From: Zygnema cylindricum | Taxonomy: Eukaryota > Streptophyta > Zygnematophyceae > Zygnematales > Zygnemataceae | Assembly: GCA_037447655.1 (NCBI GenBank) | Contig: JBBHKE010001377.1 | Coordinates: 374,241 to 438,240, forward strand | Direction of reading: 5' to 3' | Length of the DNA: 64,000 nt | Shown: positions 13,256 through 45,950 of the stretch, one piece after another | Position numbering within the stretch: position 1 is the first letter of the stretch | Layout of the letters: every line of letters begins with the position of its first letter | The notes under the pieces: generated by a model | The model's input: the letters and a program-made list of their open reading frames with translations, nothing else | What the model was told of the DNA's origin: nothing | The model's database searches: none | Position numbers and translations under genes: made by a program

Positions 13256-14064
13256 TCAATCGACGTGAAATCGGACGTGCAAACGAAACAACATGAAATC
13301 GTGGTCAAATATAGCTTTGTAGTCCCTATCCACCATAGGGGTTTTCAAATCGAAAAACAAATATATGGTCGCTAGAGGAGCTGCCCGATCGACTCTCTCC
13401 TTTCCAGAATGTATCTCTTCTCCCAAGGCCTGAATGATGATTTCTTCTGTCAGATTGTGGGAGGATGTAAGAGTCTTGATGTGTGAAAGGGCATAAGGCA
13501 TGAGGTGCCTGACCAGCATTACAACAGGTTTGGAGGACGGAAGTGGAGCTCTCGTTGACGATGTCAGCGAATCTGGTTCCTGCTGATTCTGCTCCTTCCC
13601 TTCTTGGTCGTCACTCTCAGAGCCAGAATCAGGGACTGGTGGAGTCTTGGGTGTGTCATCGTCCGGGCGTTCTGCCAAATATTGCTCAAACCATTCCTAA
13701 TTGCTCTGTTTTTCTTTTTCCAGTGACTCCTTTTTCCGTTGTTGTTTCTTGCTCTAGTAGTTTTTGAAACCGAGAGGCAGCTTAGGTTTGGTAGGAAGGG
13801 ACGGAGGGCGTGTGGGTTTGATCCCGAGGCCGATGTTGCAGTTTAGTGTGACTCCACGGGGAGTGAATGATATAGGCCCGGTGGCTTTTCGGTTCTGATC
13901 TTTTTGGCCCATCTTCTGCTTGTCTCTTCTTTGATTCGAGGTAGAAGAGCGGAGTTGTCGGCGACCATCTCCCACGCCCACATTCCACGCTCCAGGAAGG
14001 AAGCTGCGCGCATAGTGGGCATTTGGGGGTTCCAAATCCCAGCCCATCAAGTCATCATCGTTAG
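13256..14064 (-). pseudogene. Gag-like giant ORF, block 4 of 4 (C-terminal)
   Basis: Two open stretches (13754-14050 and 13256-13678) are in the same frame, split by two stops near 13690-13760. The first has MGWDLEPPNAHYARSFLPG and a basic region. The second is acidic (DSGSESDDQEGKEQNQQE), then has a helical part (VRHLMPYALSHIKTL), and ends FRLHVRFHVD*. I recognise no named domain. The right end is exactly the left TSD copy (GTTAG) of F2-b. The sequence continues in frame at 34749, so this is the C-terminal part of a long gag-like protein interrupted by retroelements. Confidence 0.6.
14060..14064. repeat. Target site duplication GTTAG (left, F2-b)
   Basis: GTTAG precedes TGTTG of the 5' LTR. 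The identical pentamer follows the 3' LTR at 34744-34748, 20.7 kb away. Confidence 0.85.
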
Positions 14065-15034
14065 TGTTGTTTTTGGAAAGTTTTAAGTCTCAATAAATTA
14101 GTGTTACGGCAAAAAGATTGAATATGAAGCATAAAAGGACACGCGTCGCCATATAGGGACAAAACATGTATATTTGAATTGCACCAACACTCACATACAC
14201 GTGTGAAACATCGAACGAAATAAAGCAGCTGCGGTGCAGTTTGGATAAAGCAACTGCCACGCAGATGGAACGAGCGCAGCTGCAGTTAATTTTGATATGG
14301 TCCGTACAGACGAACGCAGCATGCGACGCAACGGGACAAACGCAACTGAGGATATTTTGGTAGAGGACAACGTAGTTGCTACACAACAAGACAAATGTTG
14401 CTGCGGCTATTTTTGGTATGGGACAAGGCAGCTGCTACGAAGCTGCGGATATTTGAATGTAATTAAGAATTAGACTACGTTGCTACGGTTGATATGAATC
14501 AAGTCAACGGACGAGATTCACTAAGCCAAGCGACAAGTATTTGATGAAATCATCTGTATAGGATTCTTCTCAGTAATACTGATTGATTGGTGATAAATTA
14601 GTTTAGCGTGATTAGGAGCACGTAGACCTTAGTGGCAGTTTATTTCTTTGGATGTATCTTTTCGAACACTTCTATCGGCGACACAGCACTATGTCGTAAG
14701 AAAACTCAGTGAAGAGTATAAGACTTAGGAAGTAGAACACTTTATGTATCCAGACTTCCAGACTGTGTAATCTGCAGACTGTTTTTGGGAAACTTCTGAG
14801 TTACTGATCTTAGTGTATGTTGGATCAATTGCACTGAAACTTTGGGAGTTGTTATTCTTAGTGGTATTTTATACTATGGTATAGTTTGAAGCAGGTTGAA
14901 CCTTTTTATCAGATTCGGTAAGCTGTAAGAAGCAGTTGTTTGATAGGATTCTTGATAAGCTTCTATGAGTGAATCATATCTACTTCTACTACTACTGTTG
15001 CTGCTCCACCTGCACCCGTGGTCGTAGAACAACA
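14065..15034 (+). repeat. 5' LTR of F2-b
   Basis: A 970-bp LTR, TGTTGTTTTTGG ... GAACAACA, closely matching 33772-34743. It includes the short motif GTTTTTGGGAAAC found in every family 2 LTR here, and the gag N-terminal codons from 14976. Confidence 0.92.
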
Positions 15035-16005
15035 CGTTATGGGCTTTTCATCAAGAATTCTTCTCTTTTCCGGGGGGAAATTTGTTTATTGGGCAGATAT
15101 GGTGGAGACTCACTTTGACAATGTTAACCTTTTGGATATTTTGGATGGTTCGCTGGCGGATACAGATCTATCTTGGTCAAAGAAAAATTTGCAAGCTCGC
15201 TCTATTCTGAAGTTTTGTATTTGAGAAGACCTGGCTATGTTTTGGATAAAAATGAAAAAGGCCATCGATATTTGGAAATCTCTAAAGGATGATAATGAAG
15301 AGGCCAATGTCCAAGAAGAACTATTTTTGGCCGGCCAAATTTGAAACTATAAATACACAAGCGACACAATGGCTGAATATTGAAACAAGTTTCGAATTCT
15401 AATAGACTCTCATGCTTGTGCAGGTTGTTCATTTCCTCAGTTTTAACAAACAACATTACTAATCAGAGGTCTTCCTAGTGGTACGAAAGCTGCGTTTGAT
15501 AGGCTGAAACAGAAATACAAATCTAGTTGGACTTTACAGCTAGCTATTAATTTGATATTAGAAGAGGAAGATGATTTTAAAATTCTTAGTACAGCCAAGC
15601 AGAAAGAGGCTTTCAATTTAGATATTGATAGAAAAGGGCAGTTTAATCAAGAGAAAAATCAATTTAATCAACATAATTAGTTCAGACAGTTTAATCACGG
15701 TGGAAACAGACAATCAAACAATACATGTTTCTATTGTAGTGAAATAGGTCATTGTTATAAGTTCTGTCCTAAGCTTAAAAAGGCTAAATATACAGGTTTA
15801 TATAGGTCGGGATGGCAACAAAGTCAGTTTTACAAAAACTTTACGAGGCCACAACCTCGTTGAAATGCACTATTTTCGGCTTCTTTGTCATTCCCCAACG
15901 AGACTATGACACTTTTCGTAGAAGATGAAACGGATCTATTTGCAATGGCGGCGGCAATCGAAGGCCCAAAGGACCCAAGATGGATAATGGATACAGGAGC
16001 ATTAG
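14976..16005 (+). pseudogene. Copia gag and protease start (F2-b)
   Basis: A single frame runs through gag with about six stops. ATA at 14976 replaces the initiator ATG (ISTSTTTVAAPPAPVVVEQ). It continues with the QHVMG primer-site codons, FVYWADMVETHF, WSKKNLQARS, IWKSL, EELFLAGQI and RGLPSGTKAAFDRLKQKY. A zinc knuckle CFYCSEIGHCYKFC (CX2CX4HX4C, about 15725-15766) follows. The protease active site WIMDTGAL ends at 16005, where a family 1 LTR begins. The frame has survived without indels, so decay here is mostly point mutation. Confidence 0.88.
15035..15046 (+). promoter_or_regulatory. Primer binding site (F2-b)
   Basis: CGTTATGGGCTT after the LTR; consensus GGTTATGGGCCT/C. It is complementary to the initiator tRNA-Met anticodon arm and read as HVMG in gag. 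Confidence 0.75.
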
Positions 16006-17053
16006 TGAAACTCGGAGACCTCCATAGGTTCTCAAAATGGACAGCTTGCAAGAAGCCTCTAGTATATCCCGGACCACTTTGTGTTTAAGCAATAATAACT
16101 GCCACCCTGGCAGAAAAACTCGTAACACCATCATCCGTGTGAAGGGAAGACTCCCTTGAGTCGATAGCAAAAAGAATCTTTGAATTTGCTCCCCTGAGCA
16201 GTAAGTTATGGAGGGTCAAAGTTGACCTTTTGTACAGAAGCTCTCTGGGAGAGAGGGTCATATCTATCAAATTTTTCTAAGTCCTATCTCTCTCTCAAAC
16301 TCTATCTACTGACGTACGTCACCAATCGTACTAGTGTACCATACAAAAAAGTACATTTGCCTGTGTACTTTATGTACAAACATTATACAACATGACCAGA
16401 TTGTCGACACGTGTTCTTTTTGGATTTGTTTCCATAATCCTTGGCGATGTCGAAATCCAATGTCGAGGTACCACATGTCATCCGATGTGGCGGCGTCCAT
16501 AAACCGCCGAAATCTTCTTCCGCGATCTCGGCATTCTTTCCAGCCGTCCGATTGAATGCCGCTTTCAATCGTAGCCTTCATAAATATTTGCTATGTATTT
16601 GTTTCGTTATCGGAACAAATGCGCGGTACTTGTTTATTCTCTGTACTCGTAATCCGTACCTTTCATAACTGAATCTATGTATGCTGTATATAGTTGTCGC
16701 TAAATTACTAACCTAAATAAAATCGTTTATATAATTATTAAACCCTATATAGTCTACCACTAATTCTAGACTAAATAGATGAGGCTTCAGGCTACTGGCG
16801 ACATTTCCTATACGCAGGTACCAGGATCAAATCGTGTAAGCAACAATCTATCTTTTAGTAAATCAACTACTATACTACCCAGTAAATCTCTCGATAGAAT
16901 AGGCAGCCATGAAACTACCTTCTTCTCCAACTTCTCAGTGACTGCAACAAGTGTGGGAGTTGGAGAGAGAGGTTAGAGACAGACTGCATCGGCTTCATTT
17001 TATGCACTATATTTTAGACCTAGAAAATACTAAAAGAACTATCAATTTTTACA
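16006..17053 (-). repeat. 3' LTR of F1-B
   Basis: 1,048 bp, minus strand, starting TGTAAAAATTGATAG at 17053. It holds clear copies of the leader hairpins: 16099-16113 (CTGCC/GGCAG), 16149-16162 (GACTC/GAGTC) and 16188-16199 (GCTC/GAGC). It also has the stem-loop near 16924-16966 and a tRNA-like segment near 16766-16845. Confidence 0.9.
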
Positions 17054-17066
17054 CTCCTCATATTTT
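17054..17066 (-). promoter_or_regulatory. Polypurine tract of F1-B
   Basis: The minus strand reads GAAAATATGAGGAG immediately before the 3' LTR and immediately after the pol stop codon (KLKSD*). The equivalent in F1-C is GAAAATAACGGGAG. Confidence 0.7.
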
Positions 17067-17903
17067 CTAGTCACTCTTTAATTTCAGACCACACTTCTCT
17101 ATGCAGAAAATTAGCTTAGGGGAAGGCACAGGTTTGGTCATCATATCTGCTACCATCTCGCTATCTGGTAGGTACTCTAAACTGATTATTTTGTTTTCTA
17201 CTTTCTCTCTAACAAAGCTGAGTCGAATGTCCATGTGTTTGGCTTTAAAATGATGTTTAGGATTGGCAAAAATAGCAATCGCTGCCTCATTATCACAAAA
17301 ATATTTCTGCACACCACTCTTAAGGTGACCAAGCTCACCAAGCAAAGACTTGACCAACATCAATTCTTTTAAAGCAAAGCAAGAGGCCATATACTCAGCC
17401 TCCATAGTGGACTGAGCAATAATTTTTTCTTGTTTGCTACTCCAACAGCAAGCCCCATCACCCACATATAATACATATCTAGAAGTACATCTCCTTATCG
17501 GAGCATCACCATAACTAGCATCACTCCAAGTAGTGATTTCAGTATTCTCCACACCCAAATGAAACCATAGATCCCTAGTTCCTATCAAATATCTAAGGAC
17601 TCTCTTAGCTGCCTCCCAATCCTTCTTAGTGGGAGCATTTAAACTTATACTCAGCACTCCTACAAGTGCAGCTAAATCCGGCTGGGTACAATTCATAAAA
17701 TAGATTAGGCTTCCCACTACTTGCCTGTAAGGAATAGTCTGCAAGAACTTCTGTTCTTCAAGACTTAATTCCTCGTCTAACACTATGACTCCTACCTCAC
17801 TCCCCTCATTTCCCTTCTTTAACTCCATAGGACTTGTACAACTATAAGCTTTATCCATCTGAAATTTTTCCAGCATGTTCCCTATTACCTCTTTTTGAGT
17901 CAA
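17067..17903 (-). CDS. Copia RNase H and RT thumb (F1-B)
   Basis: An open frame of 278 residues ending at the natural pol terminus KLKSD*. It starts in the RT thumb (MTQKEVIGNMLEKFQMDKA), then RNase H: PYRQVVGSLIYFMN, WSDASYGD (first Asp), STMEAEYMAS (Glu), FCDNEAAI (third Asp), MDIRLSFVREK (fourth Asp) and ADMMTKPVPSPK. All four catalytic acidic positions of copia RNase H are visible, so this domain looks intact. A stop at 17937 separates it from the RT palm. Confidence 0.9.
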   Translation of the reverse strand: MTQKEVIGNMLEKFQMDKAYSCTSPMELKKGNEGSEVGVIVLDEELSLEEQKFLQTIPYRQVVGSLIYFMNCTQPDLAALVGVLSISLNAPTKKDWEAAKRVLRYLIGTRDLWFHLGVENTEITTWSDASYGDAPIRRCTSRYVLYVGDGACCWSSKQEKIIAQSTMEAEYMASCFALKELMLVKSLLGELGHLKSGVQKYFCDNEAAIAIFANPKHHFKAKHMDIRLSFVREKVENKIISLEYLPDSEMVADMMTKPVPSPKLIFCIEKCGLKLKSD

Positions 17904-17936
17904 TCTTATAATCTTTCTTTCTCGGTCTCTTTCTAC

Positions 17937-18296
17937 TTAAATTCCCAAAATATATTTTGCTTCCCCCATATCCTTTATTTCAAATCTCCCCTTAAGATCG
18001 GTTTTCAGTTTATTAATTTTTTCCATTGATTTACTTAAAATAAGCAAATCATCAACATAAATTGCAATAAATATAACACCTTTCTCATCTTCAAAAACAT
18101 TGATTGAGATATCTGAGCTGATCCCGATATATCGCAGACCGGTAAGAAACTCATCAAGCTTCTTATACCACTGTTGAGGCGCCTGTTTCAAACCATAAAG
18201 AGATTTAATCAGCCAACATACCTTACTCTCCTCCCCTTCCTCCATGAATCCTTCGGGTTGTCGCATGAAGATCTCCTCTTCCAATTCTCCATGCAA
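17937..18296 (-). pseudogene. Copia RT palm with YVDD (F1-B)
   Basis: 119 residues from HGELEEEIFMRQPEGF through SLYGLKQAPQQWYKKLDEFLT to an intact IAIYVDDLLILSKS active site and KYILGI. A TAA then separates it from the RNase H frame. The preceding RT fingers are in another frame (18209-19291), so there is a frameshift near 18300 at TAFLHGEL. Confidence 0.88.
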
Positions 18297-19291
18297 AAAG
18301 CTGTTTTGATGTCTTTCTTGTGCACCTCCATGTCTTCCGCTACTGCCTGACTGAGAAGTATGCGGACGGAGGGAAATCTGACGACCAGGGCAAAGGTTTC
18401 CTTGTAATCGATTCCTTCTTTTTGTGTAAATCCTTTTGCCACTAATCGAGCTTTGTAACGCTCTATGGTGTTATCTAGGTTCAGTTTTAATTTGAAAACC
18501 CACTTACAACCGATTGGTTTTCGGTTAGGTGGACAGTCCACTAGCTCCGAAGTATCGACTGCTATAATTAAGGCCATCTCCTTATTGATGGCTATCTTCC
18601 ACCGGTTCCTTTCTACACAAGTCATCGCCTCTCCATAAGTTTGAGGTTCATCTTGATGAGATAGTTTTGTTACCTTGTTATTAACCTGTTTTTTTTGCAA
18701 TCTTTTGTTACTACTTTTTCCTCCCTCAAAATTTGTGTCTGGAATAGATGGTTCTTGTGGTTTCTTTCGAACAATCTCGGCTTCTCCCCTATCCCTTGAT
18801 TCTGAATCAATTTCATCCACGTCTTCTGCTTCGGGTAGAGTTGTCACTAGAGTTTCCGCAGCCGAGTCCTTTTTGGTCTTATTTGTACCTGCAAGAATGT
18901 CATCTTCTCTAAAACTTGGATAGTTAGGAAGCTCAAAGTCATCGAATTTTTTTGACTCAAATCTGATTTTTATTGACTTTATATACTTGAAGGGATCCAC
19001 AAACTTTCCTTCATCCATAACTACTAGATGCTTTACTAAGATTATATCTTCCCTTTTTAGATCATAAACGATATATCCTTTAACATCCTCATCATATCCT
19101 AAAAAGTATTCCGAATTTCCTTTAAGATCTAGCTTCCAATTAGACCGATCTGTATCTAGACTGAATACTTGATTGCCAAAAACCTTTAAGTGAGATATGT
19201 CCACTTTTTGGCCGGTCCATCTCTCATAAGGTGTTTGATCTTTTATAGCTGGGGTAAGAACTCTATTTTTGAGGTAATTAGCACAGTTCAT
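18209..19291 (-). CDS. Copia integrase C-terminal part, linker and RT fingers (F1-B)
   Basis: A 360-residue open frame. Integrase C-terminal region comes first (YERWTGQKVDISHLKVFGNQVF, YFLGYDEDVKGY), then the acidic linker with KRLQKKQVNNKVTKLSHQDEP. RT fingers follow (IAVDTSELVDCPPNRKPIGCKWVFKLKLNLDNTIERYKARLVAKGFTQKEG). The frame shifts after DIKTAF into a nonsense tail (SSCDNPKDSWRKGRR). The tail carries the +1 reading of the true continuation, HGELEEEIFMRQPEGF. Confidence 0.88.
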   Translation of the reverse strand: MNCANYLKNRVLTPAIKDQTPYERWTGQKVDISHLKVFGNQVFSLDTDRSNWKLDLKGNSEYFLGYDEDVKGYIVYDLKREDIILVKHLVVMDEGKFVDPFKYIKSIKIRFESKKFDDFELPNYPSFREDDILAGTNKTKKDSAAETLVTTLPEAEDVDEIDSESRDRGEAEIVRKKPQEPSIPDTNFEGGKSSNKRLQKKQVNNKVTKLSHQDEPQTYGEAMTCVERNRWKIAINKEMALIIAVDTSELVDCPPNRKPIGCKWVFKLKLNLDNTIERYKARLVAKGFTQKEGIDYKETFALVVRFPSVRILLSQAVAEDMEVHKKDIKTAFCMENWKRRSSCDNPKDSWRKGRRVRYVG

Positions 19292-19323
19292 TGCTTCTGC
19301 CCAAAAACCTTTTTCCTATCTTC

Positions 19324-19941
19324 TTATCCGAAAAACAAACTTCTACCACTATCACTTAGTGTCCTACTTAATCGTTCAGCTACCCCAATCTGTTCTGGGT
19401 TTTCTGGAACTGTCTTATGGTGTTGAAGTCCATCTTCCCTTAGAAAATCCTCATATTGGTTAGAAGTATACTCTCCACCATTGTCACTCGTTATTCTTTT
19501 GATAGGTATTTCATGGAGTTTTACGCTCCATGCTTTATATTGTCTAAAACACTCATGAGCTTCTGACTTGTTTTTCAAAAAAGACACCCTGGATTACAGA
19601 GACCAATCATCAGTTATAGTCATCATAAATCTCTTGCCCCCCGGTGAGGGCACTTTAGCCGGTCCCCAAATATCTGTGTGTACTAGATCTAGAATTTTTT
19701 CTCCCTTATAGGTGGCTGTTTTAGGAAAGGGTAATCTGTGTGCTTTACCTTGAGCACATCCACTAAAATCACTTATATTATCACTCTCACTGAACTGAAT
19801 CCCTTCCACCACTCCCATCTTTTTCATCTCTCTTAACTTATCAAGATTCACATGCCCAAGCCTCTTATGCCACATCATAATATCATGAACACCAGCATAA
19901 TAAAATTTCTTTGTTTCATTACTTAAAATCAGCCTAAACAT
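19324..19941 (-). pseudogene. Copia pre-integrase finger and integrase core (F1-B)
   Basis: Two frames. 19594-19941 has HKRLGH and a C-X2-C that reads FSGCAQ, so its first Cys has become Phe, followed by HTDIWGPAKVPSPGGKRFMMTITDDWS. 19324-19587 has SDNGGEYTSNQYEDFLREDG and PEQIGVAERLSRT (catalytic Glu). The break between them is near YSRVSFLKN. The zinc finger Cys loss and the frameshift both argue against activity. Confidence 0.87.
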
Positions 19942-19944
19942 CCC

Positions 19945-20562
19945 TTAGCTACCTTTCTCAACAACGAAACAGACCTCCTCCTCAAAACTAGCAGTAAAGA
20001 TTCCTTCACTATTGCTAGTAAAAAAACCCTTATCATCTAATACAGATGTAGAGATGAGGTTTTTGTTCAGCCCCAGAATAAACAATACATCGGAGAATGT
20101 TACTATAGATGTCTTTCCTTCTACTACCACTTTCATATCTATCGATCTTACAAGTGTAGTAGTGACTATCCTCACATCGCCGTACTCTATCTCTACGGTG
20201 GGAATCATTTTTATGTTAGTGAACAGGTTCTTATCCTTACCCATGTGCATGGAGGCACCTGATTCTACAATCCAGCCTGCTTCACCTTTCAATCCAACGT
20301 AAGCACATTTTTGCCCTCGTGGAATTTCGACCTTGTTTTTCGCCTACAACTACTCATCCAAAAGGAGCTCATCATCCTCGTCCTCGGATTCCGCCTCATG
20401 CACCTGTGTCACAAGGGCTTTTTTCTTTCCTCTCGAGGTTCCACTGGTCTGCCCCTTCTTTAACCGAAGCTCGGATAGCTTAGTGCACTCCGCCATATAG
20501 TTCCCCGGTTTCTTACAAAAATGACATAAACCTTTGGGAAACCTAGGTCTGAACCTCGACAT
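19945..20562 (-). pseudogene. Copia nucleocapsid and protease (F1-B)
   Basis: Zinc knuckle CHFCKKPGNYMAEC, where the His of CX2CX4HX4C is replaced by Asn, in 20350-20562. Then the protease, 19945-20292: WIVESGASMHMGKDKNLF. The catalytic Asp of DSGAS is Glu, so protease chemistry is expected to be lost. The VRSIDMKVVVEGKTSIVTFSDVLFI region follows and leads into the integrase frames. Confidence 0.87.
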
Positions 20563-20699
20563 AAACGTTGGTCCAAACTCGTCGGTCTGATTTTTCTGCT
20601 CCCTCCCCCCATAGTTTCAGACGGGTTTTCGGGAATCCTTATTCTTCCAATCGGTCGCTGCTGTGAAGGCTTGCCCACTCTTTCCTCCCCTTCAGATCT

Positions 20700-21446
20700 C
20701 AATCGTATTCTCTCGAACGAGAATCATCCCTACCACTGAGTTCTATATCCACCTAGAGTCCGACAATTCCTTCACACGGTTAACTATGTTCTCGAACTCG
20801 TTGGGTAACTTCATTAGTAAGTAGTTAACCTTTTCTTTTTCACTAAAATCTTTTCCCAAACTCTCTAGCTCCATGAAAAGTGTAGCAAGCTCATTGCAAA
20901 AATCCAACATTTTCCATCGTTGTATACATACTCATTAACATTTTGATCAGCCAACTGTTGTTGCTGAATCGTACCACTTCGGTACATCTCTATGAGAGCC
21001 ATCCAAAGATTGGATGCCCTTTCTACCTGCAAATAAGGACATGCAAGCCCTTCAGTAAAATGGCGGAGGATGAAGTGCTTTGCCGCCATATTGTTAAAGT
21101 CCCAGGTATCAGTATCATTTTCCTTGTTCCTCGAAATCTGTGACATGAATGCTGAACCAGTTGCTATTGATGTGGTCGTCTTCTTCTCTGTTCTTTTGTC
21201 CACCACCTCTCCTTCCTTTGTCTCCTTCGTTGAAGATGGATCTGCTTTCGTTGTGAATCTGCTTCCTCCAAACCTAGGAGGGATTCCAAGACTTGATGGA
21301 CGCCCCACTCGTCCACTCACTATCCCCCATAACCTTTTCTCGCATAAAGCTTCTGTCATCATACTTTCCCAGTATATGAAGCTATTTCCATTAAATATGG
21401 GTACCCTAGAGGGTGGGCCCATAACATGAAACTATGAGACCTCCAT
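20700..21446 (-). pseudogene. Copia gag N-terminal region (F1-B)
   Basis: A 185-residue open stretch (20865-21422) starting at MGPPSRVPIFNG, the codons of the primer site region. In the 5' LTR the true start ATGGAGGTC is followed by TCATAG, a stop, so translation from the LTR start is cut. Features are FIYWESMMTEALCEKRLWGIVSGR, LGIPPRFGGSRF, NNMAAKHFILRHFTEGLACPYLQVERASNLWMALIEMYRSG. It is the longest family 1 gag stretch in the window and useful as a reference for the other copies. Confidence 0.87.
21415..21426 (-). promoter_or_regulatory. Primer binding site (F1-B)
   Basis: The minus strand reads TGTTATGGGCCC, one change from the consensus, directly after the LTR end AGTTTCA. Confidence 0.8.
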
Positions 21447-22477
21447 AGGTCCTCAGATTGGACAGCTTGCAAGAAGCCTCTAAGATATCTTGAACCCCTT
21501 TGTTTTCCAGCAAAAATAATTGCCACCTTGGCAGACAAAACCTCTAACCACCTTCACCTTTGTGAAGAGAAGATTTTCGTGAGTCGATAGCAAAAAGAAT
21601 CTCTGAATTTGTTCACCTGAGCGGTAAGTTATGGAGGGTCAAAGTTGACCTTTTGTATAGAAGCTCTCTAGGAGAGAGGGTCCGATCTATCAAATTTTTC
21701 TAAGTGCTATCTCTCTCTAAAACTCTATCTATTGACGTACGGCACCAATCATATTACTGTAGTGTACATAAAAGTACAGTTGCCAGTGTACTTTATGTAC
21801 GAACATTGTACAACATGACCATATTGTCGACACGTGTCTTTTTTGGATTTGTTTCCATAATCCCTAGCGATGTCGAAATCCAATGTTGTGGTACCACGTG
21901 TCATCCGATGTGGTGGCGACCATAAACCGCCAAAATCTTCTTCCGCGATCTCGGCATCCTTTCCACCCGTCCGATTGAATGCCGATTTCAATCGTAGCCT
22001 TCATAAATATTTGCGATGTATTTGTTTCGCTATCGGATCAAATGCGCGGTACTTATTTATTCTTTGTACTCGTAACCCATACCTTTTATAACTGAATCTA
22101 TGTATGCCGTATATAGTGGACGTTAAATGATTTAACCTAAATGTAATCGTTTATATAATTATTAAACCCTTTATCGTCTACCACTAATTCTATACTAAAT
22201 TGATCAGGCTTCAGGCTACCGGCGACATTTCCTATCTGCATGTACCAAGATCATATCATGTAAGTGACAATCTATCTTTTAGTAAATCAACTACTATACT
22301 ACCCCGTAAATCTCTGGATAGCATAGGCAACCATGACACTAGCTTCTTCTCTAACTTCTCAGTGACTGCAAAAAGTGTGGGAGTTGTAGAGAGAGGTTAG
22401 AGTCAGACTGCCTCGACTTCTTTTTTTGCACTTTATTTTAGACCTAGAAAATACTAAAAGAACCATCAATTTCTACA
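21427..22477 (-). repeat. 5' LTR of F1-B
   Basis: 1,051 bp, starting TGTAGAAATTGATGG at 22477. It is visibly diverged from the 3' LTR at 16006-17053 by substitutions and small indels, so this insertion is not recent. Confidence 0.9.
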
Positions 22478-22887: not shown

Positions 22888-23101
22888 TGTTGAAATCACT
22901 AGATTTATGAAGTATTTTCTAGGTATGGATAACTTAATAAAAAAAGAAAAGAAAAGCGCAAGCAGTCTGTCTCCACCTCTTTCCTCTATCCCCCATACTT
23001 GTTGTAGTCATTGAAAGAGAGAGGGAGTGGTGGAACTATGGCCGCCTCAGCTCCATAGGCAAGACTAAAGAGTGACATAAGTCACTTTCAACAAAAAGGT
23101 T

Positions 23102-23180
23102 GAGTCCGGCAAGACTCGAACCTTCGACACGCAAAGCGCAACGTAGCCGTCATCTCTAACCAGTCTGTCGTAGGAGTTCG
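23102..23180 (-). other. tRNA-like module in LTR-C (antisense)
   Basis: The minus strand reads CTGGTTAGAGATGACGGCT (A-box/D-arm like), then about 20 nt on GGTTCGAGTCTTGCCGGACTC (B-box GGTTCGAGTC, T-loop TTCGAGT). It looks like a decayed tRNA gene but sits at the same relative place as similar modules in other LTRs. Confidence 0.5.
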
Positions 23181-35068: not shown

Positions 35069-35164
35069 GGAAGCTAAAGCCATGGCTGCCTAGGCTATCC
35101 AGAGATTTATGGGAAATAGATTAGATTATTTACCGAGAAGTTATTTACTAAAATGGTGATGTCT

Positions 35165-37383: not shown

Positions 37384-38180
37384 ACTAGGAAAGGAGTCTT
37401 TACTGCTTGGTTTGAGGAGGATGTCTATTTCATTGCTGAGAAAGGTAGCCATGGGATGTTTAGGCTGATTTTAAGTAATGAAAGAAAGAAACTTTATTAT
37501 GCTGGTGTTCATGATATTATGATGTGGCATAAAAGGCTTGGGCATGTGAATCTAGATAAGTTAAGAGAGATGAAAAAAATGAGAGTAGTGGAAGGGATTC
37601 AGTTCAGTGAGAGTGATAACATAAGTGATTGTAGTGGATGTGCTCAAGGTAAAGTACACAGATTATCCTTTCCTAAAACAGCCACCTATAAGGGAGAAAA
37701 AATTCTAGATCTAGTACACACAGATATTTGGGGACCGGCTAAAGTGCCCTCACCGGGGGGGAAGAGATTTATGATGACTATCACTGATGATTGGTCTCGG
37801 TATTCCAAGGTGTGTTTTTTTAAAAACAAGTCAGAATCTCAGGATTGTTTTAGAAAATATAAAGCATGGAGCGAAAAACTCCATGAAACTCCAATCAAGA
37901 GAGTAAGGAGTGACAATGGTGGAGAGTATACCTCTAGCCAATTTGAGGATTTTATGAGGGAAGATGGAGTCCAACACCAAAGACAGTTTCAAAAAACTCG
38001 GAAAAAAATGGAGTAGCTGAAAGGTTAAATAAAACAGTAAGTGATAGTGCTAGAAGTATGTTGTCAAATAAGAAGATAGGAAAAAGGTTTTGGGCAGAAG
38101 CAATGAACTGTGCTAATTACCTCAAGAATAGAGTTCTCACTTCAGCTATAAAAGACCAAACACCTTATGAGAGATGGACA
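37384..38180 (+). pseudogene. Copia integrase (F1-C)
   Basis: An open part 37456-38016 (186 residues): MMWHKRLGHVNLDKLREMKKM, SDCSGCAQGK (complete HHCC finger), HTDIWGPAKV, TITDDWSRYS, RSDNGGEYTSSQFEDF. First and second catalytic Asp are present. A frameshift at PKTRKKME then precedes GVAERLNKT (Glu) in the next frame, followed by NCANYLKNRVL and a stop after YERWTF near 38186. Confidence 0.9.
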
Positions 38181-38817
38181 TTCTAGAAATCATACATATC
38201 TCACTTAAAGGTTTTTGGTTGTTAAGTATTCAGTCTAGATACAGATCAGTCTAATTGGAAGCTAGATCCTAAAGGAAAACCGGGATACTTTTTAGGATAT
38301 GATGAGGATGTTAAAGGATATATCGATTATGATCTAAAAAGGGAAGATATAATCTTAGTAAAGCATCTTATAGTTATAGATGAAGGAAAGTTTGTGGATC
38401 CCTTCAAGTATATAAAGTCAGTAATAATCAGATTTGAGTCAGAAAATTCCGATGACTTTGAGATTCCTAACTATCTAGGTTTTTAGAAAAGATGACCTTC
38501 TTACACGTACAAATCACACCGAAAACGACTCGGATGCGGAAGCTCCAGTGACAACTCTACTCGAAGCGGAAGACGTGGTGGAAATTGATTCGGAATCAAG
38601 GGATAGGGGAGAAGCCGAGATTATTCGAAAGAATCCACGAGAACCATCTATTTCGGCCACAGATTTCGAGGGGGGAAGGAGAAGTAGCAAAAGATTGCAA
38701 GAAAATTATGTTAATAACAAGGTAACAAAACTATCTCATCAAGATGAACCTCAGACTTATGGAGAGGCGATGACTTGTCTAGAAAGGAACCGGTAGAAGA
38801 CAGCCATTAATGAGGAG
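38181..38817 (+). pseudogene. Copia integrase tail and linker (F1-C)
   Basis: SHLKVFGC-VFSLDTDQSNWKLDPKGKPGYFLGYDEDVKGYIDYDLK, LVKHLIVIDEGKFVDPFKYIKS, then the acidic linker (38548-38796 open) with SRDRGEAEIIRKNPREPSI, FEGGRRSSKRLQENYVNNKVTKL and a stop at NRWKTA (TAG, 38797). The linker is a good landmark because it differs between families 1, 2 and 3. Confidence 0.84.
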
Positions 38818-39594
38818 ATGGCCTCAATTATGGCAGCGAATACTTGGGAGCTAGTGGATTGTCCACCTAACCGAAAACCAATCGGTTATAAGTGGGTTTT
38901 CAAATTAAAACTGAACCTAGATAACACAATTGAGCGCTACAAGGCTCGATTAGTGGCAAAGGGATTTACACAAAAGGAGGGAATTGTCTACGAGGAAACC
39001 TTTGCCCCGGTCGTCAGAGTTCCTTCCGTCCGCATACTTCTCAGTCTGGCAGCAGCAAAAGACAAGGAGGTGCACCAGATGGACATCAAGACAGCCTTTT
39101 TGCATGGAGAATAGGAAGAGGAGATCTTTATGCGACAACACAAATGATTTGTGGAGGAAAGAGAGGAGAGTAAGGTATGCCGGCTGATTAAATCTCTTTA
39201 TGGTTTGAAACAGGCCCCTCGACAGTGGAATAAGAAGCTTGATGATTTTCTTACCGGTCTGGGATATATCCGGATTAGCTTAGATCACTCAATCTATGTT
39301 TTTGAAGATGAGAAAGGTGTTATATTTATTGCAATTTATGTTGATGATTTGCTTGTTTTAAGTAAATCAATGGAAAAAATTAATAACATGAAAACCGATC
39401 TTAAGGGGAGATTTGAAATGAAGGATATGGGGGAAGCAAAGTATATTTTGGGAATTCAAGTAGAAAGAGACCGAAAAAGAATGATTATAAGATTGACTCA
39501 AAAAGAAGCAATAGGGAACATGCTTGAAAAATTTCAGATGGATAAAGCTAATAGTTGTACAACTCCAATGGAGTTAAGGAAGGGAAGTGAGTGA
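38818..39594 (+). pseudogene. Copia reverse transcriptase (F1-C), YVDD intact
   Basis: Two open pieces. 38818-39114: MASIMAANTWELVDCPPNRKPIGYKWVFK, EETFAPVVRVPSVRILLSLAAAKDKEVHQMDIKTAFLHGE. 39151-39594: SLYGLKQAPRQWNKKLDDFLTGLGY and IAIYVDDLLVLSKS with YVDD at residues 63-66 (39337-39348), then KYILGIQVERDRKRMIIRLTQKEAIGNMLEKFQMDKA. A TAG after HGE (39112) separates them. This is the best preserved RT catalytic site in the window. Confidence 0.9.
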
Positions 39595-40040
39595 AGTGAG
39601 GAAGAAGGAGTAATAGTGTTAAACGAGGATTTATCTCATGAAGAATAGAAGTTCATGCAGACTATTCGTTACAGGCAAGTAGTGGGAAGTCTAATTTATT
39701 TTATGGAGGCTGAGTATATGGCCTCTTGCTCTGTTGGAAAAGAATTGATGTTGGTCAAGTCTTTGCTTGCTGAGCTTGGTCACCTCAAGAGTGGTTTACA
39801 TAATTTTTTTTGTAATAATCCGGCAACAATCGTAATTTCTGCCAATCCTAAACATAATTTTAAAGCCAAACACAAGGACATTTGACTCAGCTTTGTTCGA
39901 GAGAAAGTAGAAAACAAATTAATCAGTTTTGAGTACCGACCAGATAGTGAGATGGTAGCAGATATGATGACCAAACTTGTGCCTTCCCCTAAGCTAATTT
40001 TCTGCAGGGAGAAGTGTGGTCTAAAATTAATGATTGACTA
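39595..40040 (+). pseudogene. Copia RNase H with internal deletion (F1-C)
   Basis: VGSLIYFM runs directly into EAEYMASC. The roughly 97 residues between them in F1-B (CTQPDLAAL through STM, including the first catalytic Asp) are missing. The joint shares ATG on both sides, which suggests microhomology-mediated loss. It ends AKHKDI-LSFVREKVENK ... MTKLVPSPKLIFCREKCGLKL. Confidence 0.88.
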
Positions 40041-40054
40041 GAAAATAACGGGAG
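40041..40054 (+). promoter_or_regulatory. Polypurine tract of F1-C
   Basis: GAAAATAACGGGAG directly before the 3' LTR. Confidence 0.72.
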
Positions 40055-41117
40055 TGTAGAAATTGATGGTTCATTTTTTAAGTATTTTCTAGGTCAAAAT
40101 TAAAATAGAGAAAGAAGCCGAGGCAGTCTGCCTCTTACTTCTCTCTCCAACTCCCACACTTGTCGCAGTCACTGGGAAGTTGGAGTGGAAGCTAGAGCCA
40201 TGGCTGCCTAGGCTATCCAGAGATTTACGGGAAATAAATTAGATTATTTACCGATAAGTTATTTACTAAAAGGGTGATGTCTGAACCAGGATTTGAACCA
40301 GGTACCTACGGAATAATAGATAGCTGGTAGCCGGTAGTCATAACCGTTAAGTCTAAGACTAATGATACATGATATAGGGTTTGATTTTTATTTAAATATA
40401 ATTACGTAGGATAATTCATTTAACTGCAACTGTTTACGAGATACATAGATCCAATTTTGTAAAAGTACTGATTAAGGTACGGAAAAGGAACAAATACCGC
40501 GCATTTGTTTCGATAGCGAAATGAATACCGTGCAGGTATTTGTTACGGCTACGATTAAATATTCATTTAATCGGACGGCGGAAATTAATGCCGAGATCGC
40601 GGAAGAGGATTTCGGCGGTTTTTGGTCATCGCCACATCGGATGACACATGGCGGAAAGACATTGGATCACGGCATCTCCGGGGATTAAAAGGGCGAATCC
40701 GGATATACCAAGTGTCGACATTTAGGCCATGTCGTACACTATTCGTACAGAAAGTACACAGGTAGCTAAACTTTTGTGTACGATAGTGTAATATGATTGG
40801 TCTGTACATCAGTAGATAGAGTTTTTGAGAGAGATAAGACTTAGAAAAAATTGGTAGATAGGACCCTCTCTCCCAGAGAGCTTCTGTACAAAAGGTCAAC
40901 TTTGACCCTCCATAACTTACTACTCAGGGGAGCAAATTCAAAGATTCTTTTTGTTATTGACTCCTTGGAGACTTCCCTTCACAAGGGTGAAGGTGGCCAG
41001 AGTTTTTGTCTGCCAAGGTGGTAGTTGTTCTTAGTGAAACACAAAGGGGTCAAGGTTATCATAGAGGCATCTTGGAAGCTGTCCATTCTGAGGACTTATG
41101 GAGGTCATAGAGTTTCA
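40055..41117 (+). repeat. 3' LTR of F1-C
   Basis: 1,063 bp, TGTAGAAATTGATGG ... AGAGTTTCA. It carries the same antisense tRNA-like module (40275-40356, T-loop TTCAAAT) and hairpins as the 5' LTR. Confidence 0.93.
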
Positions 41118-41122
41118 TAAGT

Positions 41123-41805
41123 CTAGCCGGAGCAACTGGTGCTTCTTTCGCTGACTTTGGCGTGTGCAAAACTTGGCGTCCCTAAAAGTAAAGAAGTTGA
41201 AGGGGAAGATGGTTAACGACAGTTTCTTCTCCTCTCGTAAAATGAAAATATTGCATCATTTCCTTAGGAACTCTGTTCTTCCGGAAACATTGTCCTTCCT
41301 TGTGTCCCATAAAACAGAAAGCTTCGCACTTTGCGCCTTCGGTGGTATATTTACTCCGAAAGTCGTTGGAGATTTGAGCATGGTCAAACTTTTGAAGTTT
41401 TATTTGCCGTAGTTGGGATTGAGACATGTTAGAGGGTTCGCTCCGGGATATTGGATAGTAATTGTCCTTGGTTACGGGTGGTCTTTCCCGCCCCCCAGCT
41501 CCTTTGAGCCGTTCCTGGTGGTGTCTTTGATTCCTTTCTGCACGCTCTTTTTCCCATTCCTTCTGCTTGAGTGCCAGCTCTGGTTTGAGTTTCCTGGTTT
41601 AGCGCTTCCACCCATGTCCTGGTTGTTGACATTTCAGAGAATTGTAAAGAATTACATGGTCCTCTGCCCCCATTGCAGGTTCTCGCCCACTCTCAACTAC
41701 TTGCTTCCCTTTAAGCTTTCGCAAAGCTTAAAGGTCAGCTTGTTTTTCCTCACTCAAGGAGATTTCCCCTGCAAATCCTGCAAAATTTGCTCTGGCCTTG
41801 CTGGT
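41123..41805 (-). pseudogene. Gag-like giant ORF, block 2 of 4, with zinc-knuckle-like motif
   Basis: Read on the minus strand: a piece with CQQPGHGWKR, then a strongly charged coiled-coil-like stretch (ELALKQKEWEKERAERNQR, HHQERLKGAGGRERPP), then YYPISRSEPSNMSQSQL, KLQKFDHAQISNDFRSKYTT and CEAFCFMGHKEGQC. The last has the 14-residue span of a CCHC knuckle but Cys spacing CX3CX3HX4C. It continues QCFRKNRVPKEMMQYFHF to the right LTR junction. Three stops occur in one continuous frame. The zinc-knuckle-like motif is the reason for calling the whole ORF gag-like. Confidence 0.6.
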
Positions 41806-42853
41806 TGTAGAAACTAATGGTTTTAAATTATTTTATAGGTCGGAATAGAAATAAAGAAGCCGAGGCAGTCTACCTCTAACTTCTCTCTCCAACTCTCAAA
41901 CTTGTCGCAGTCACTGAGAGATTGGAGAGGAAGCTAGAGCCATGGCTACCTAGGCTATCCAGAGGTTTACGGGAAATTTATACTAGTTAAGGGATTATTT
42001 ACTAAAAGGTATATGCCAGCCACAGGATTTGATCCTTATACCTGCTGGCCGACAACCGGAAATAGCCGGTAGCCTTAGCCGTTAAGTCTAGCAGTAGTGT
42101 TACGTAATATATAGTACGATATTTAGTTAAACATTAATACATAGGTTTAATTATTTAACTATAACTATGTACGGTATACATAGATCCGGTAATGTATAAG
42201 TACGGAATACGGTACATGCACGAAATCAATACCGCGCATTTTATTTCGTAAGTGAAACAAATACCGCGCATGTATTTATTACGGCTACGATTAAATTAGA
42301 TTCTAATCGAACGGCCGGAATTAGCGCTGAGATCGCGGAAGAAGATTTTGGCGGTTTGTGGCCATCGCCACATCGGATGATGCGTGGCGAAATTACATTG
42401 GATCGTGGAATCTCCGAAGATTATGGCACCGAATCCGGATATGACATGTGTTGACATTTGGGCCATGTCGTACAATGTTCGTACATAAAGTAAACCGGCA
42501 GCTGTACTTTTGCGTACGGAACAGTATTCTGATTGGTTTCGTACATCAGTAGATAGAGTCTGTGAGAGAGATAGGACTTAGAAAAATTAGGAGATAGGTC
42601 CCTCTCTCCCAGAGAGCTTTTGTACAAAAGGTCAACTTTGACCCTCCATAACTTACTGCTCAGGGGAGCAAATTTAGAGATTCTTTTTGCTATCGACTCA
42701 GGGGAGTATTGCTTTCATAGGGGTGCAGGTGGTGAGTGTTTTTGTCTGCCAGGGTGGCAGTTATTTTTGCTGAAACACAAAGGGGTCAGGATTATCTTAG
42801 AGGCTTCTTGAAAGCTGTCCACTCTGAGGACTTATGGAGGTCTCAGAGTTTCA
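41806..42853 (+). repeat. Family 1 solo LTR
   Basis: 1,048 bp, TGTAGAAACTAATGG ... AGAGTTTCA, flanked by CTGGT (41801-41805) and CCGGT (42854-42858), a TSD with one substitution. It contains the stem-loop 41885-41929, a tRNA-like module (42010-42095), GCTCAGGGGAGC (42658-42669) and CTGCC-AGGGT-GGCAG (42746-42760). Solo LTRs arise by recombination between the two LTRs of one element. Confidence 0.92.
41885..41929 (+). promoter_or_regulatory. LTR stem-loop with compensatory inner pairs
   Basis: CTCTCCAACTCTC pairs with GAGAG-A-TTGGAGAG (13 bp, one bulge). Relative to 35028, the inner CCC/GGG has become CTC/GAG, a paired change. Loop AAACTTGTCGCAGTCACT. Confidence 0.65.
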
Positions 42854-42858
42854 CCGGT

Positions 42859-44186
42859 CACGGCCTTCTCCCTTGCCTCATTGTGGACGAAGTGGTCGTA
42901 CAACTTCATGGCCACTAGCGAGATGTCCTTTGCAAAGAGGTTTATGTCCTGAATTTCTTGCCTGACGATCCAGTTATCCAAGATATTTTGCCCCATAGGC
43001 CCGAAAGAATTGCGGATAGCTATAATATACTTTGTGGCCATTTTCGGAAAATTAATGGTCGACAGCTTGTATTTGTGGCAAAGGCTGGATAGACGATTGA
43101 AGAGAGTCTTGGGAGTCTTGTTCTTCAAACATCAGAATTCCGTAAATTCCTTGATTCCCGATTCATTCCTCTCAGTGTAAAAGAGTCTTTAGATATTAAG
43201 AAAGGTAGTACAAGGGTTGGGATCGGCCACCATGCGAGTTGTTGCCCGTGCTGACTGAATGGCTTGAAGTTGGTTAACATAGGCCATTCTTTCGGCCTGC
43301 AGCTTCATGTCATCATTGAAGGTGGCTGTCACAGGTTTTACCGCCGATGCAGCTAAGTAAGCCTTTGCTTGTTAAACTGTCGCATGTAGAGCGGGATCAG
43401 AGATCTTGATGCTAAGAGCCATCAAGAGAGGTTGACGCTCCTTGTAAACTGCCAATGCCCCTCCCGAAAGGTAGTTGACCATCATGGGGAAAAGAGTTGT
43501 TTTGAAATCATCCGGAATGGCTCCTCCCCTGTATTGATTGATTTCGGATAATGTGAACGATTTCCATAACAACTCAAAATATGAGAAAACGATCCCCGAG
43601 CTATCTCCTGTAAAGATCCAAATGTCCCCCATTTCCTTTTCTTCTTCTGCAGAATGGGTGAACTGAGAATAGGAAGGCCAGGTGGGACTGAAAAACAGGG
43701 CCGGCGAAGTGACTCCTATGTCCTTTTCCTCGAGACCGGAACCGTCTACTCCTCTGGTAGGGGGTGCGGATCTGAGAGGTGTGGATCCCCCGCACACAGA
43801 GGAAATACTACCGCATGAAATATGGTGGGAGGAATAATATTCCCCACCGATAGGACTCATATTCCCCTTGGTGCGGAGGGTATCCGCGTTTGATGACCTG
43901 CCTGGCCGGGTGGAGAAGAAGTTAGATTGTCCACTCCTCTATATCCACGAGAGTATCGTTCATCCTTGAGAACTGTCTCCTCTGATGGGATGTGGATCCA
44001 AGGTCGGTTCAAAGGGGGATTTCGGGGAATGGATGGTGAAGAAGACGTGGACGGCTAGAGGCTTTGAGGAGAAGGTGTCTGTCTCTTCAAAGGTGTCTGT
44101 CTCCGGGAACTTCTTCGAGAGGGTTCAGGATGAGGAGTTATTGAACTGGAGGATGGGGAACGATGGTGAGGAGGTGAGTAAACGTC
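42859..44186 (-). pseudogene. Gag-like giant ORF, block 1b of 4 (capsid-like region)
   Basis: Open stretches 43372-43860 and 42832-43128 share a frame, with a few stops between them. The sequence is helical: FSYFELLWKSFTLSEINQYR, FKTTLFPMMVNYLSGGALAVY, AERMAYVNQLQAIQS, TERNESGIKEFTEF, LFNRLSSLCHKYKLSTINFP, SFGPMGQNILDNWIVRQEI and MKLYDHFVHNEARE. The pattern of amphipathic helices, with an ESGIKEF..LFNRL segment before a downstream zinc knuckle, resembles retrotransposon capsid. That is inference only. A frameshift relative to block 1a lies between 43860 and 44187. Confidence 0.5.
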
Positions 44187-45950
44187 TTATTTGTATGGTA
44201 GGACAGACGAACCTGGTGACCCACGGATTGTCGCAGTGGGGGAAAAGGATGATGAAGGAGAGGAGGTGGGAGCGCCCCGAGGCTTTGGGTTAGAGTTTGG
44301 AGATTGAGAGGAAGGAGGAGGAAATAGAGGAGAAGTAGGAAGATCAAGGGGCGCTCTGGGTGGTGGCGAAGGAGGTGTTGACGGTGTCAAGGGAATGTGA
44401 ATTCTCTTGTCTGGTTGTAACTCCACCAAGGTTGCCACGGCTGAAGAAAACTCCACCGAAACAAAAGTGGGCTCTTCTCGAGGAGCCGCCGCGAGTTTTG
44501 AAGGTGAATCTGCACCTAAACCATCAACATTAGGTCTTGTGTCTTCCCCCTCTTCCCGCTGAAGAGGAGGTTCTTGACTAGTCTCCGAGGGAAGAACGTC
44601 CGGTGGTGGCCGTACAATAAAAGGTTGTCCTTTGTTTGGTGTTTGTGACTGCGGTTCAGTTAATGGTGTAGGAGGAATCCACCCGCTGAGAATCCCACTC
44701 GATCTACGCCAAGCTTCCGTTATAAGTTTCAAGTCTTATTCACACAACTTTCTCCTTTTTTCCTCCAAGGCCTCCCAATCTACCGTGGCACGTCCAATCC
44801 CCGCCGTAGCGCTGCCCTAGGATTTTAGAACTTCCACTAGTTACTGAGCCCTTTTGACTACCCCAGTCGGATCCGCTATCCCCATTTCCGGAATCTCTGG
44901 ATCGTTAGGCCTAGTTCGCCACAATCCTTCTCATGTATCTGCTGGTCCCACATCCGAAACCTCTGGGTCAGTAGGTTCGGATCGCCAGAGCCCCTCGGTA
45001 GTGCGGACAAAAGGTGCCGTCGGAGAAGGTCCCTTGGTGGAGACTGACATTGGAATTCGGGAAGTCTCTTCCTTGGGAAGAGGTGGAAATCTGCCCTTAC
45101 TGTCCCTATGGTCAAAACTTTTCCCCCTCAATGGTTCTCGAGCTTCCCTCTCGCCACCCCCTGCTCCCCTACGAGAATAGGAAGTGAGGCACCCCCGGGA
45201 GGGTCGGCTGGCCGCAGTGTCTTGGGAGGAAGATGGAGGAGGAAGAGAATAAGGATCCCTCCTAGACCAGTCCTTACCCGACTGTGAAGAACTACTCTCC
45301 AAAGAACAGCATAAGATCTCCACCACCCCTCCCATTGGTCTAACCACCCGGGCTCGATTTGTCCGAGCCACTCTCCGAACCAACTCTTGCTTCACCTCCA
45401 ATTCATGGAGGTCGAAACGAGCAAGGAGTTACTTACGAACAGGGCGGTTGGGATCCGCCAAAACCGCAGGGTCAATCTGAATCTCAGCCCTGGGAATCTT
45501 CGATCGGGTATGAAGCTCGACCTCTGCAAGAGGACCCAAATGGGGCTCCCGTTGAGCTTGCCTATCTGGTTAGGCCCTGGGTGACACTCGGTTCCTTTCT
45601 TGAGCTTGTGCCTTGGACTCCCTTCTTTCCTCGGCAAAGGCACTGGCGGCCTCAGCCAAAGAAAGGAAATGTTCAGGCGTAATCCTAGGAGGAGATGGAG
45701 AAGAAGTCGTCTCAAGTGGCTCCTGGGCGAGAGAGTCAAAGACAGTTTCCTTGGGTACCGACTCGTTCGACATCTGCGACTTTTCCACCTGTACGGGCTT
45801 CTCCTGCCTGCCCTGTCCTTCAAATCCATTAGCCGGAACCTCTCCTTCCCCCTTGATGACTGAGGTAACAAGCGAAGAGGTAATAAATGTAACCAGAGCT
45901 CAGTTCCCAAAAGAGAGCTTCTTCAGTCAAAACTCTTATCCCCTCTAACA
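44187..45950 (-). pseudogene. Gag-like giant ORF, block 1a of 4 (N-terminal, Pro-rich)
   Basis: Three open stretches in one frame (45570-45788, 44931-45401, 44187-44732), with about seven stops in total between and around them. An N-terminal helical and Glu-rich part (ITPEHFLSLAEAASAFAEER) is followed by basic/coiled sequence, an internal repeat of about 60 residues period (EGLWRSEPTDPEVSDVG then EGLWRTRPNDPEIPEMG), and a strongly Pro/Ser-rich region. The start is not clear: nothing distinguishes an initiator near 45950. It is GC-richer than the flanking copia elements. Confidence 0.5.

What the first reader, a model, noticed from the sequence alone, without database searches (positions are those of the whole stretch)
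13256..45950. One ancient minus-strand gag-like ORF, cut into four blocks by three datable insertions
Seen: blocks 45950-42859, 41805-41123, 34936-34749 and 14064-13256 lie in the same orientation. Each gap between them is an LTR element or solo LTR with a 5-bp TSD (CTGGT/CCGGT, TAAGT/TAAGT, GTTAG/GTTAG). The inserted lengths plus one TSD (1,053; 6,186; 20,684 bp) exactly predict the frame change of the ORF on each side (0, 0 and 2 mod 3). That is independent support for all three junctions. The protein would be about 1,600 residues: Pro-rich N-terminus, helical capsid-like part, charged coiled coil, CCHC-like motif, acidic C-terminus. I recognise no family. It may be the gag of an unclassified LTR element or a domesticated gag-like host gene.
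Basis: partly seen in the sequence, partly recalled or inferred. Interest (0 to 1): 0.88.

Follow-up and report, generated by a model that had tools for sequence, protein, structure and literature searches.

The report
Relic of a methyltransferase-carrying jumping gene
The broken coding stretch is the front half of an old copy of a virus-like jumping gene, one of many copies in this genome, whose fuller copies carry their own DNA-methylating enzyme and sit in the chromosome in an unusually rearranged order.

Summary
The junctions are real: in 10 fetched copies blocks 1|2 and 2|3 lie side by side in 10 of 10, and 3|4 in 9 of 10, the tenth having a deletion there. The "one ORF" is broken: 17 stops and a frame change against an open relative. 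It is no domesticated gene: 515 candidate copies, 40 scored. It is the gag half of a Ty3-type retrotransposon, cut off at 13316. Fuller copies continue, past an in-frame UAG kept in 10 of 11 copies, into a Dnmt3-like methyltransferase, RT, RNase H, DDE integrase and a PHD-like finger. Nearest published relative: KnitGypsy-Dnmt3 (PMC5890265), with the same split repeats A-coding-B-A-B. Added here: exact 4-bp target-site duplications in 5 of 7 insertions of a sister family (0 of 3 in the window's own, older family), a self-complementary primer site, and a G-tract placed so that reverse transcription should give B-A-coding-B-A. Genomic copies thus look permuted before integration. Free opening of a circle does not fit: 13 of 14 readable 5' sides are of one form. 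Relatives occur in Marchantia and Haematococcus. Host not identified.

The parts
45977..47153 (-). 5' repeat A of the element (TGTCAAGC...AAAGTACA)
   Evidence: 78.6% identical to repeat A of copy C1628 over its whole length
45606..45976 (-). leader; its first ~26 nt (45976-45951) are the decayed primer-binding site, 18 of 26 complementary to this copy's own A near A position 602
   Evidence: this copy's pairing does not exceed shuffles
42859..45605 (-). relic of ORF1 (gag), part 1: Pro-rich N-part and capsid-like part (43647-42859)
   Evidence: tblastn to C1527 ORF1 residues 1-910; 12 stops and one frame change
41806..42853 (+). insertion 1: solo LTR; TSD CTGGT 41801-41805 / CCGGT 42854-42858
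   Evidence: empty site in 10 of 10 copies
41123..41805 (-). relic of ORF1, part 2, with two damaged zinc knuckles
34937..41118 (+). insertion 2: LTR element (copia-type by its ORF, read by eye), LTRs 93.4% identical; TSD TAAGT
   Evidence: empty site in 10 of 10 copies
34749..34936 (-). relic of ORF1, part 3
14065..34743 (.). insertion 3: LTR element (LTRs 14065-15039 and 33772-34743, 88.7% identical) holding nested elements with LTR pairs 16006-17053/21427-22477 (88.9%) and 23604-24488/28917-29797 (91.6%); TSD GTTAG
   Evidence: empty site in 9 of 10 copies, deletion in the tenth
13316..14064 (-). relic of ORF1, part 4 (acidic part); homology to the element ends here, before protease, methyltransferase and pol

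Best explanation
SHOWN: the blocks are the 5' half (repeat A, leader, gag) of a decayed Ty3-type LTR retrotransposon, split by three later insertions and ending at 13316. Fuller copies of the family encode gag (two zinc knuckles) and an aspartic protease, then, after an in-frame UAG, a Dnmt3-like C5-cytosine methyltransferase, RT, RNase H, integrase and a PHD-like end, with repeats laid out A-coding-B-A-B and ends TGTC...GACA. A sister family in the same genome (C1344) has the same order in one 2,395-residue frame, the same repeat layout, and 4-bp target-site duplications at those ends. INFERRED: (1) the UAG is read through to make Gag-Pro-DNMT-Pol. (2) Minus-strand synthesis is self-primed: the nucleotides just after A pair with a site inside A. 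(3) Plus strand starts at the G-tract just before B, so the linear cDNA is B-A-coding-B-A. (4) Its ends are joined (A|B), and the DDE integrase opens the DNA at the B|A palindrome (GACA-GC-TGTC) and inserts A-coding-B-A-B. (5) The methyltransferase marks the element's own DNA, and the PHD finger steers integration to particular chromatin.
For: Empty sites. Pfam in C1527: DNA_methylase 1.7e-8 in frame after the ORF1 stop, then RT, RNase H, integrase, weak PHD; DNA_methylase also in C1254 (1.7e-9) and C1628 (9.3e-7); the full order with PHD 1.5e-9 in C1344. Best PDB match DNMT3A 2.8e-13, against about 2e-5 for HhaI and 0.0019 for DRM2. DNMT dN 0.19-0.26 with dS saturated or above 2.4; two close copies dN/dS 0.28. 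UAG in 10 of 11 copies, although two of them are only 73-74% identical to C1527 around it. In C1344 the A copies are identical over 931 bp and the B copies 99.6%, TSD TTGG; exact TSDs in 5 of 7 C1344-family insertions. Primer site complementary to the copy's own A for 17 nt in C1344 and 28 nt in C1527, against at most 10 and 11 in 60 shuffles each. The A|B2 joint differs in C1848, C1913 and C704 from that of C1344, C215 and C1643, while the GC spacer between B1 and A is kept in 4 of 4. DNMT and RT trees share the deep 5-versus-27 split.
Against: No TSD at all in the three copies of the window's own family with both ends read (C1628, C1254, C1527), so the insertion route is carried over from the sister family; also none in C1643, and 3 of 4 bases in C2578. 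A circle with two B|A sites should also give A-B-A-coding-B: 13 of 14 readable 5' sides are plain flank-A-leader, and the other, C1864 (A-B-A), ends in B-A-B. C2022 ends coding-B-flank without a second A, a form the model would allow, but its 5' side is lost. Self-pairing does not exceed shuffles in C1254, C1864 and the window. In 35 of 42 methyltransferases compared the motif-IV Pro is Glu, so activity is not certain. CpG is only mildly low in the relic, 0.60-0.65. The single-sequence fold of the capsid part has low confidence.
Confidence: 0.82

Rival explanations
1. A domesticated, gag-derived host gene that has been interrupted by transposons.
For: The gag part (residues 560-1120 of the C1527 ORF1) has no relative at E <= 1e-3 among the 8,000 candidates scored.
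Against: 515 candidate copies, all 40 scored matching; repeat A in front and pol behind in other copies; stops in this copy.
Confidence: 0.02
2. A DIRS-like route: the A-coding-B-A-B layout is made by a tyrosine recombinase acting on circular DNA, and the DDE integrase is not what inserts the element.
For: The same repeat layout is described for DIRS elements and for KnitGypsy-Dnmt3. In the window's own family no TSD was seen in 3 of 3 copies, as recalled for tyrosine-recombinase insertion.
Against: No tyrosine recombinase among the Pfam hits of the whole C1344 frame; exact 4-bp TSDs in 5 of 7 C1344-family insertions; integrase catalytic residues in place in C544 and C1344 and integrase dN/dS 0.03-0.09.
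Confidence: 0.12
3. The layout arises after ordinary insertion, by recombination among tandem or solo repeats rather than from a circular or end-joined intermediate.
For: Solo A-B copies (C215, C1643), the compound A-B-A-coding-B-A-B of C1864 and shortened second A repeats in C1527 and C1254 show that repeats recombine or stack here; no TSD in 3 of 3 window-family copies.
Against: TSDs flank A-start and B-end directly in C1344, C704, C1653 and C1110, and nine copies show B-A-B at the 3' side.
Confidence: 0.18

Closest known systems
KnitGypsy-Dnmt3 of the charophyte Klebsormidium nitens (de Mendoza et al. 2018, PMC5890265; section 9 and passages read)
   Same: Ty3/gypsy element with a Dnmt3-type methyltransferase in the Pol frame and repeats laid out as in DIRS elements; DNMT under purifying selection.
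   Different: In its main text 'PHD', 'target site' and 'circular' occur 0 times and 'TSD' once, on Symbiodinium LINEs; primer site and stop-codon terms were not searched there, and figures and supplements were not seen. No K. nitens name appeared in the lists, so the two were not compared by sequence.
Tf1/Sushi and Tcn1 Ty3 elements with self-priming (PMC6317226, passages read)
   Same: Primer site complementary to the element itself instead of a tRNA.
   Different: Those are chromoviruses; here a PHD-like finger ends the integrase, and the insertion ends are not the ends set by primer site and G-tract.
DIRS-type tyrosine-recombinase retrotransposons (layout from the PMC5890265 legend; the rest recalled)
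   Same: Split direct repeats A-coding-B-A-B and an implied circle.
   Different: DDE integrase and, in the C1344 family, 4-bp TSDs.
Methyltransferase proteins annotated in Marchantia polymorpha (P0043 Mp_4g09160 and five MARPO entries) and Haematococcus lacustris (P0011, P0038)
   Same: DNMT 39-44% identical to C544 (Marchantia) and 36-39% to C1344 (Haematococcus); P0043 has CCHC and protease-like motifs before the DNMT (by eye), P0011 has RT, RNase H, integrase and PHD.
   Different: Other families; named hypothetical or CCHC-type proteins in the sources.

Membership tests
Ty3/gypsy LTR retrotransposon | order protease-RT-RNase H-integrase | tested here: met
Ty3/gypsy LTR retrotransposon | insertion with short TSD | tested here: inconclusive
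   exact 4 bp in 5 of 7 C1344-family insertions, 0 of 3 in the window's own family
Ty3/gypsy LTR retrotransposon | two full LTRs bounded by primer site and polypurine tract in the integrated copy | tested here: not met
   copies are A-coding-B-A-B
KnitGypsy-Dnmt3 type | Dnmt3-like methyltransferase in the Pol frame | tested here: met
KnitGypsy-Dnmt3 type | DIRS-like repeats with Gypsy domains | tested here: met
KnitGypsy-Dnmt3 type | common descent with the K. nitens element | not tested
   no K. nitens sequence reached
DIRS-like (YR) retrotransposon | tyrosine recombinase | tested here: not met
   rve and Integrase_H2C2, no phage-integrase domain, among Pfam hits of the whole C1344 frame
Chromovirus | chromodomain at the integrase C-terminus | tested here: not met
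   PHD 1.5e-9 and no chromodomain in C1344
Self-primed (Tf1-like) element | primer site complementary to the RNA 5' end | tested here: inconclusive
   self-complementarity shown; RNA start not known
C5 cytosine methyltransferase | motifs I, IV, VI, VIII, X with catalytic Cys | tested here: met
   Cys kept in 42 of 42; motif IV Pro-Cys-Gln in 5, Glu-Cys-Gln in 35, other in 2; C633 and P0039 lack part of the later motifs in the alignment

The most novel reading that the evidence does not exclude
A Ty3-type retrotransposon lineage of green plants and algae that inserts from an end-joined or circular cDNA opened at an internal palindrome by a DDE integrase, so that its genomic copies are circular permutations of what reverse transcription makes, while carrying its own self-primer, read-through switch, cytosine methyltransferase and chromatin-reading PHD finger.
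Probability: 0.35. Interest if true: 0.85.

Novelty: new variant of a known kind. Interest (0 to 1): 0.67.

Why it matters
A mobile element that carries an enzyme of its host's silencing system is a puzzle: does it hide, restrain or protect itself? Such elements are in print for one charophyte and for dinoflagellates. Here they occur in many copies in another genome, with relatives in a liverwort and a chlorophyte, and methyltransferase and RT share their deepest split, so the capture looks old in this set. Permuted repeats together with integrase-type TSDs bear on whether LTR elements can insert from circular DNA, a route recalled as abandoned for retroviruses, and young copies with identical repeats make it testable.

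Tried and rejected
Pfam on the pieces of the window relic: nothing over cut-off. Gag protein search: no relatives. Prediction that C1864 is the other circle product A-B-A-coding-B: failed, C1864 ends in B-A-B. Complementarity sought first in the opening 80 nt of A gave only 8-nt hits; the better site lies at A 457 or about A 600. CpG depletion as a trace of self-methylation: weak. Capsid fold from one sequence: mean pLDDT 43, all-helical, not searched further. A covariation test of primer site against internal site in 20 more C1344-family copies, and a look upstream of C2022, could not be run: the fetches did not complete.
Full report
What was checked. The window is G000:C1030:374241-438240 of a 352.8-Mb assembly in 2,689 contigs. 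The four blocks lie on the minus strand in the stated order. Self-comparison shows what fills the gaps: a solo LTR at 41806-42853; an LTR element at 34937-41118 with 93.4% identical LTRs; and an LTR element at 14065-34743 with 88.7% identical LTRs, which holds nested elements whose LTR pairs are 88.9% and 91.6% identical.

The empty sites exist. A 567-bp piece of block 1 has 515 candidate places in the genome; 40 were scored and all 40 match, the 39 other than the window itself at 78-84%. I took the 10 best other copies as 20-kb stretches. Blocks 1 and 2 have the spacing of an empty site in 10 of 10, and so do blocks 2 and 3 (within 10 bp). Blocks 3 and 4 do in 9 of 10; in C142 they are adjacent with a deletion. 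The three junctions are therefore insertions into a repeat family.

The ORF is not intact. Copy C1527 has an open frame of 1,625 codons. Against it the window relic shows 17 stops and one frame change inside block 1.

What follows gag. In C1527 the ORF1 stop is followed in the same frame by a stretch that hits DNA_methylase (1.7e-8); further on come RT, RNase H, integrase and a weak PHD finger (0.004, under the cut-off). DNA_methylase is also found at this place in C1254 and C1628. ORF1 itself holds two CCHC knuckles and an aspartic-protease motif. Copy C544 has the part after the stop open for 1,525 codons, down to a PHD-like end (by eye). A sister family, C1344, has everything in one 2,395-codon frame: knuckle (0.009, weak), protease (0.012, weak), methyltransferase (2e-11), RT, RNase H, integrase, PHD (1.5e-9). 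The genome has 782 candidate places for DNA_methylase; 123 were scored and all 123 pass the cut-off; I did not sort host genes from elements among them. The window copy ends at about 13316, before any of this.

The methyltransferase. Its best solved relatives are DNMT3A chains (2.8e-13), ahead of HhaI (about 2e-5) and DRM2 (0.0019). Between C544 and nine copies of the window's family dN is 0.19-0.26, while dS is saturated or above 2.4; two close copies, C544 and C633, give dN/dS 0.28. RT and integrase are tighter, 0.02-0.09 where finite. The domain has thus been kept by selection. In 35 of 42 sequences compared the motif-IV proline is glutamate, in 5 it is proline, in 2 the motif differs otherwise.

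The stop between Gag-Pro and DNMT-Pol. TAG is present in 10 of 11 copies and TAGCAATTC in 9 of 11, although C544 and C633 are only 73-74% identical to C1527 around it. The context resembles, from recall, the leaky UAG-CAA type of plant viruses. That it is read through is inferred. The C1344 frame has no such stop.

Split repeats. The layout A-coding-B-A-B is seen whole in C1344 and C1628, and in C1527 and C1254 with a shortened second A. B-A-B is seen at the 3' side of C2337, C1848, C1913 and C704, and in C1864, which has an extra A-B in front. That makes nine copies with B-A-B. Two differ: C1014 has a deletion reaching into A, and C2022 ends coding-B and then unrelated DNA. Ends are TGTC...GACA. 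In C1344 the two A copies are identical over 931 bp and the two B copies 99.6%, so that insertion is very young.

Target-site duplications. In the C1344 family, 4 bp flank A-start and B-end in C1344 (TTGG), C704 (ACTC), the solo A-B C215 (GTCA), C1653 (AACA) and C1110 (CCTC); C2578 has 3 of 4 bases, the solo A-B C1643 none. That is 5 of 7. In C1653, C1110 and C2578 the two ends lie 13.8-15.9 kb apart instead of 9.5, and I take them as one element with inserts. In the window's own family the three copies with both ends read, C1628, C1254 and C1527, show none. They are older (the two A repeats of C1628 are 91.5% identical), and two have a shortened second A, so they may be recombinants; but this is a gap in the argument.

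Primer site and G-tract. In C1344 the 17 nt right after A are the exact complement of A 457-473; in C1527 28 nt complement A 599-626. The best of 60 shuffles of A scored 10 and 11. C142 (13 against 11) and C1628 (10 against 9) also exceed their shuffles at the same place; C1864, C1254 and the window do not, though the internal site is recognisable in all eight window-family copies compared (21-26 of 26). In one search the A ends of C1062 and C1014 were set a few bases off, so their pairing scores are too low. A G-rich tract lies directly before B in both families. Together these predict a linear cDNA B-A-coding-B-A, yet the genome holds A-coding-B-A-B. Joining the cDNA ends (A|B) and opening at B|A explains this. 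The A|B2 joint is the same in C1344, C215 and C1643 but differs in C1848 (extra T), C704 (shortened B) and C1913, while the GC spacer between B1 and A is kept in C1344, C1848, C1913 and C704; in the other family the B|A joint varies a little.

What speaks against a free circle. A circle with two repeats offers two B|A sites. Of 14 copies whose 5' side I could read, 13 begin with A straight from flanking DNA (window, C1344, C2390, C704, C1170, C1022, C2578, C1628, C1254, C1527, C1653, C1110, C1062, the last with an insert in A); C142 was left out because it shares the C1628 flank. C1864 begins A-B-A but also ends B-A-B. C2022 could be the other product, as its 3' side is a lone B with an intact end, but its 5' side is lost. 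So the opening must be directed, or the route is another.

Relatives. A search with the C1344 methyltransferase found 39 proteins, 29 with a precomputed PHD domain, two of them from Haematococcus lacustris. A search with the C544 one found 31, including six Marchantia polymorpha entries at 39-44%; P0043 is a protein with CCHC motifs, a protease-like motif and the methyltransferase. In trees of the 32 proteins with both domains, methyltransferase and RT share the same deepest split, 5 against 27 rows (100/99 and 100/100), which fits one old capture; finer branches differ. In a quick tree of 67 rows the two families of this host are not each other's nearest neighbours.

Literature. PMC5890265 (section 9 and passages read) describes KnitGypsy-Dnmt3 with DIRS-like repeats and gypsy domains. 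PMC12344493 (passages read) repeats that DNMT3s sit in retrotransposons of streptophytes and dinoflagellates. PMC6317226 (passages read) covers self-priming. PMC5784723 (12 of 17 passages read) counts five Marchantia methyltransferases and does not mention these elements there. In the titles and abstract openings listed by searches I saw no paper on a PHD-bearing integrase of this kind, on TSDs of split-repeat Ty3 elements, or on such elements in Marchantia or Haematococcus; the library is open-access only and some lists were cut.

Verdict. A good observation of an ordinary fossil, which leads to an unusual family: a new variant of the methyltransferase-bearing Ty3 elements, with a surprising and testable insertion route that is not yet proven for the window's own family.

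Noticed in passing
C1344, C544 and 40 other DNMT sequences: The motif-IV Pro-Cys-Gln of C5 methyltransferases reads Glu-Cys-Gln in 35 of 42 retroelement enzymes compared, with the Cys kept.
   Followed up: partly
60431-61036: Tandem array of 101-bp units, about 6 copies, alternate units more alike.
   Followed up: no
10620-11087: Plus-strand open frame with a signal-peptide-like start (by eye), possibly a first exon of a host gene.
   Followed up: no
11937-11946, 30726-30735, 61007-61016: Three runs of exactly 10 N, apparently assembly joins; one lies inside insertion 3.
   Followed up: no
C1628 and C142 (L017, L015): The two copies share flanking DNA as well as the element (93.5% over 6.9 kb), so probably a segmental duplication rather than two insertions.
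   Followed up: partly
C1864 (L009, L010, L054): Compound copy A-B-A-coding-B-A-B with three A repeats.
   Followed up: partly
C2022 (L014), oriented position 17816: Copy ending coding-B with an intact GCTCGACA end and unrelated DNA after it, no second A.
   Followed up: partly
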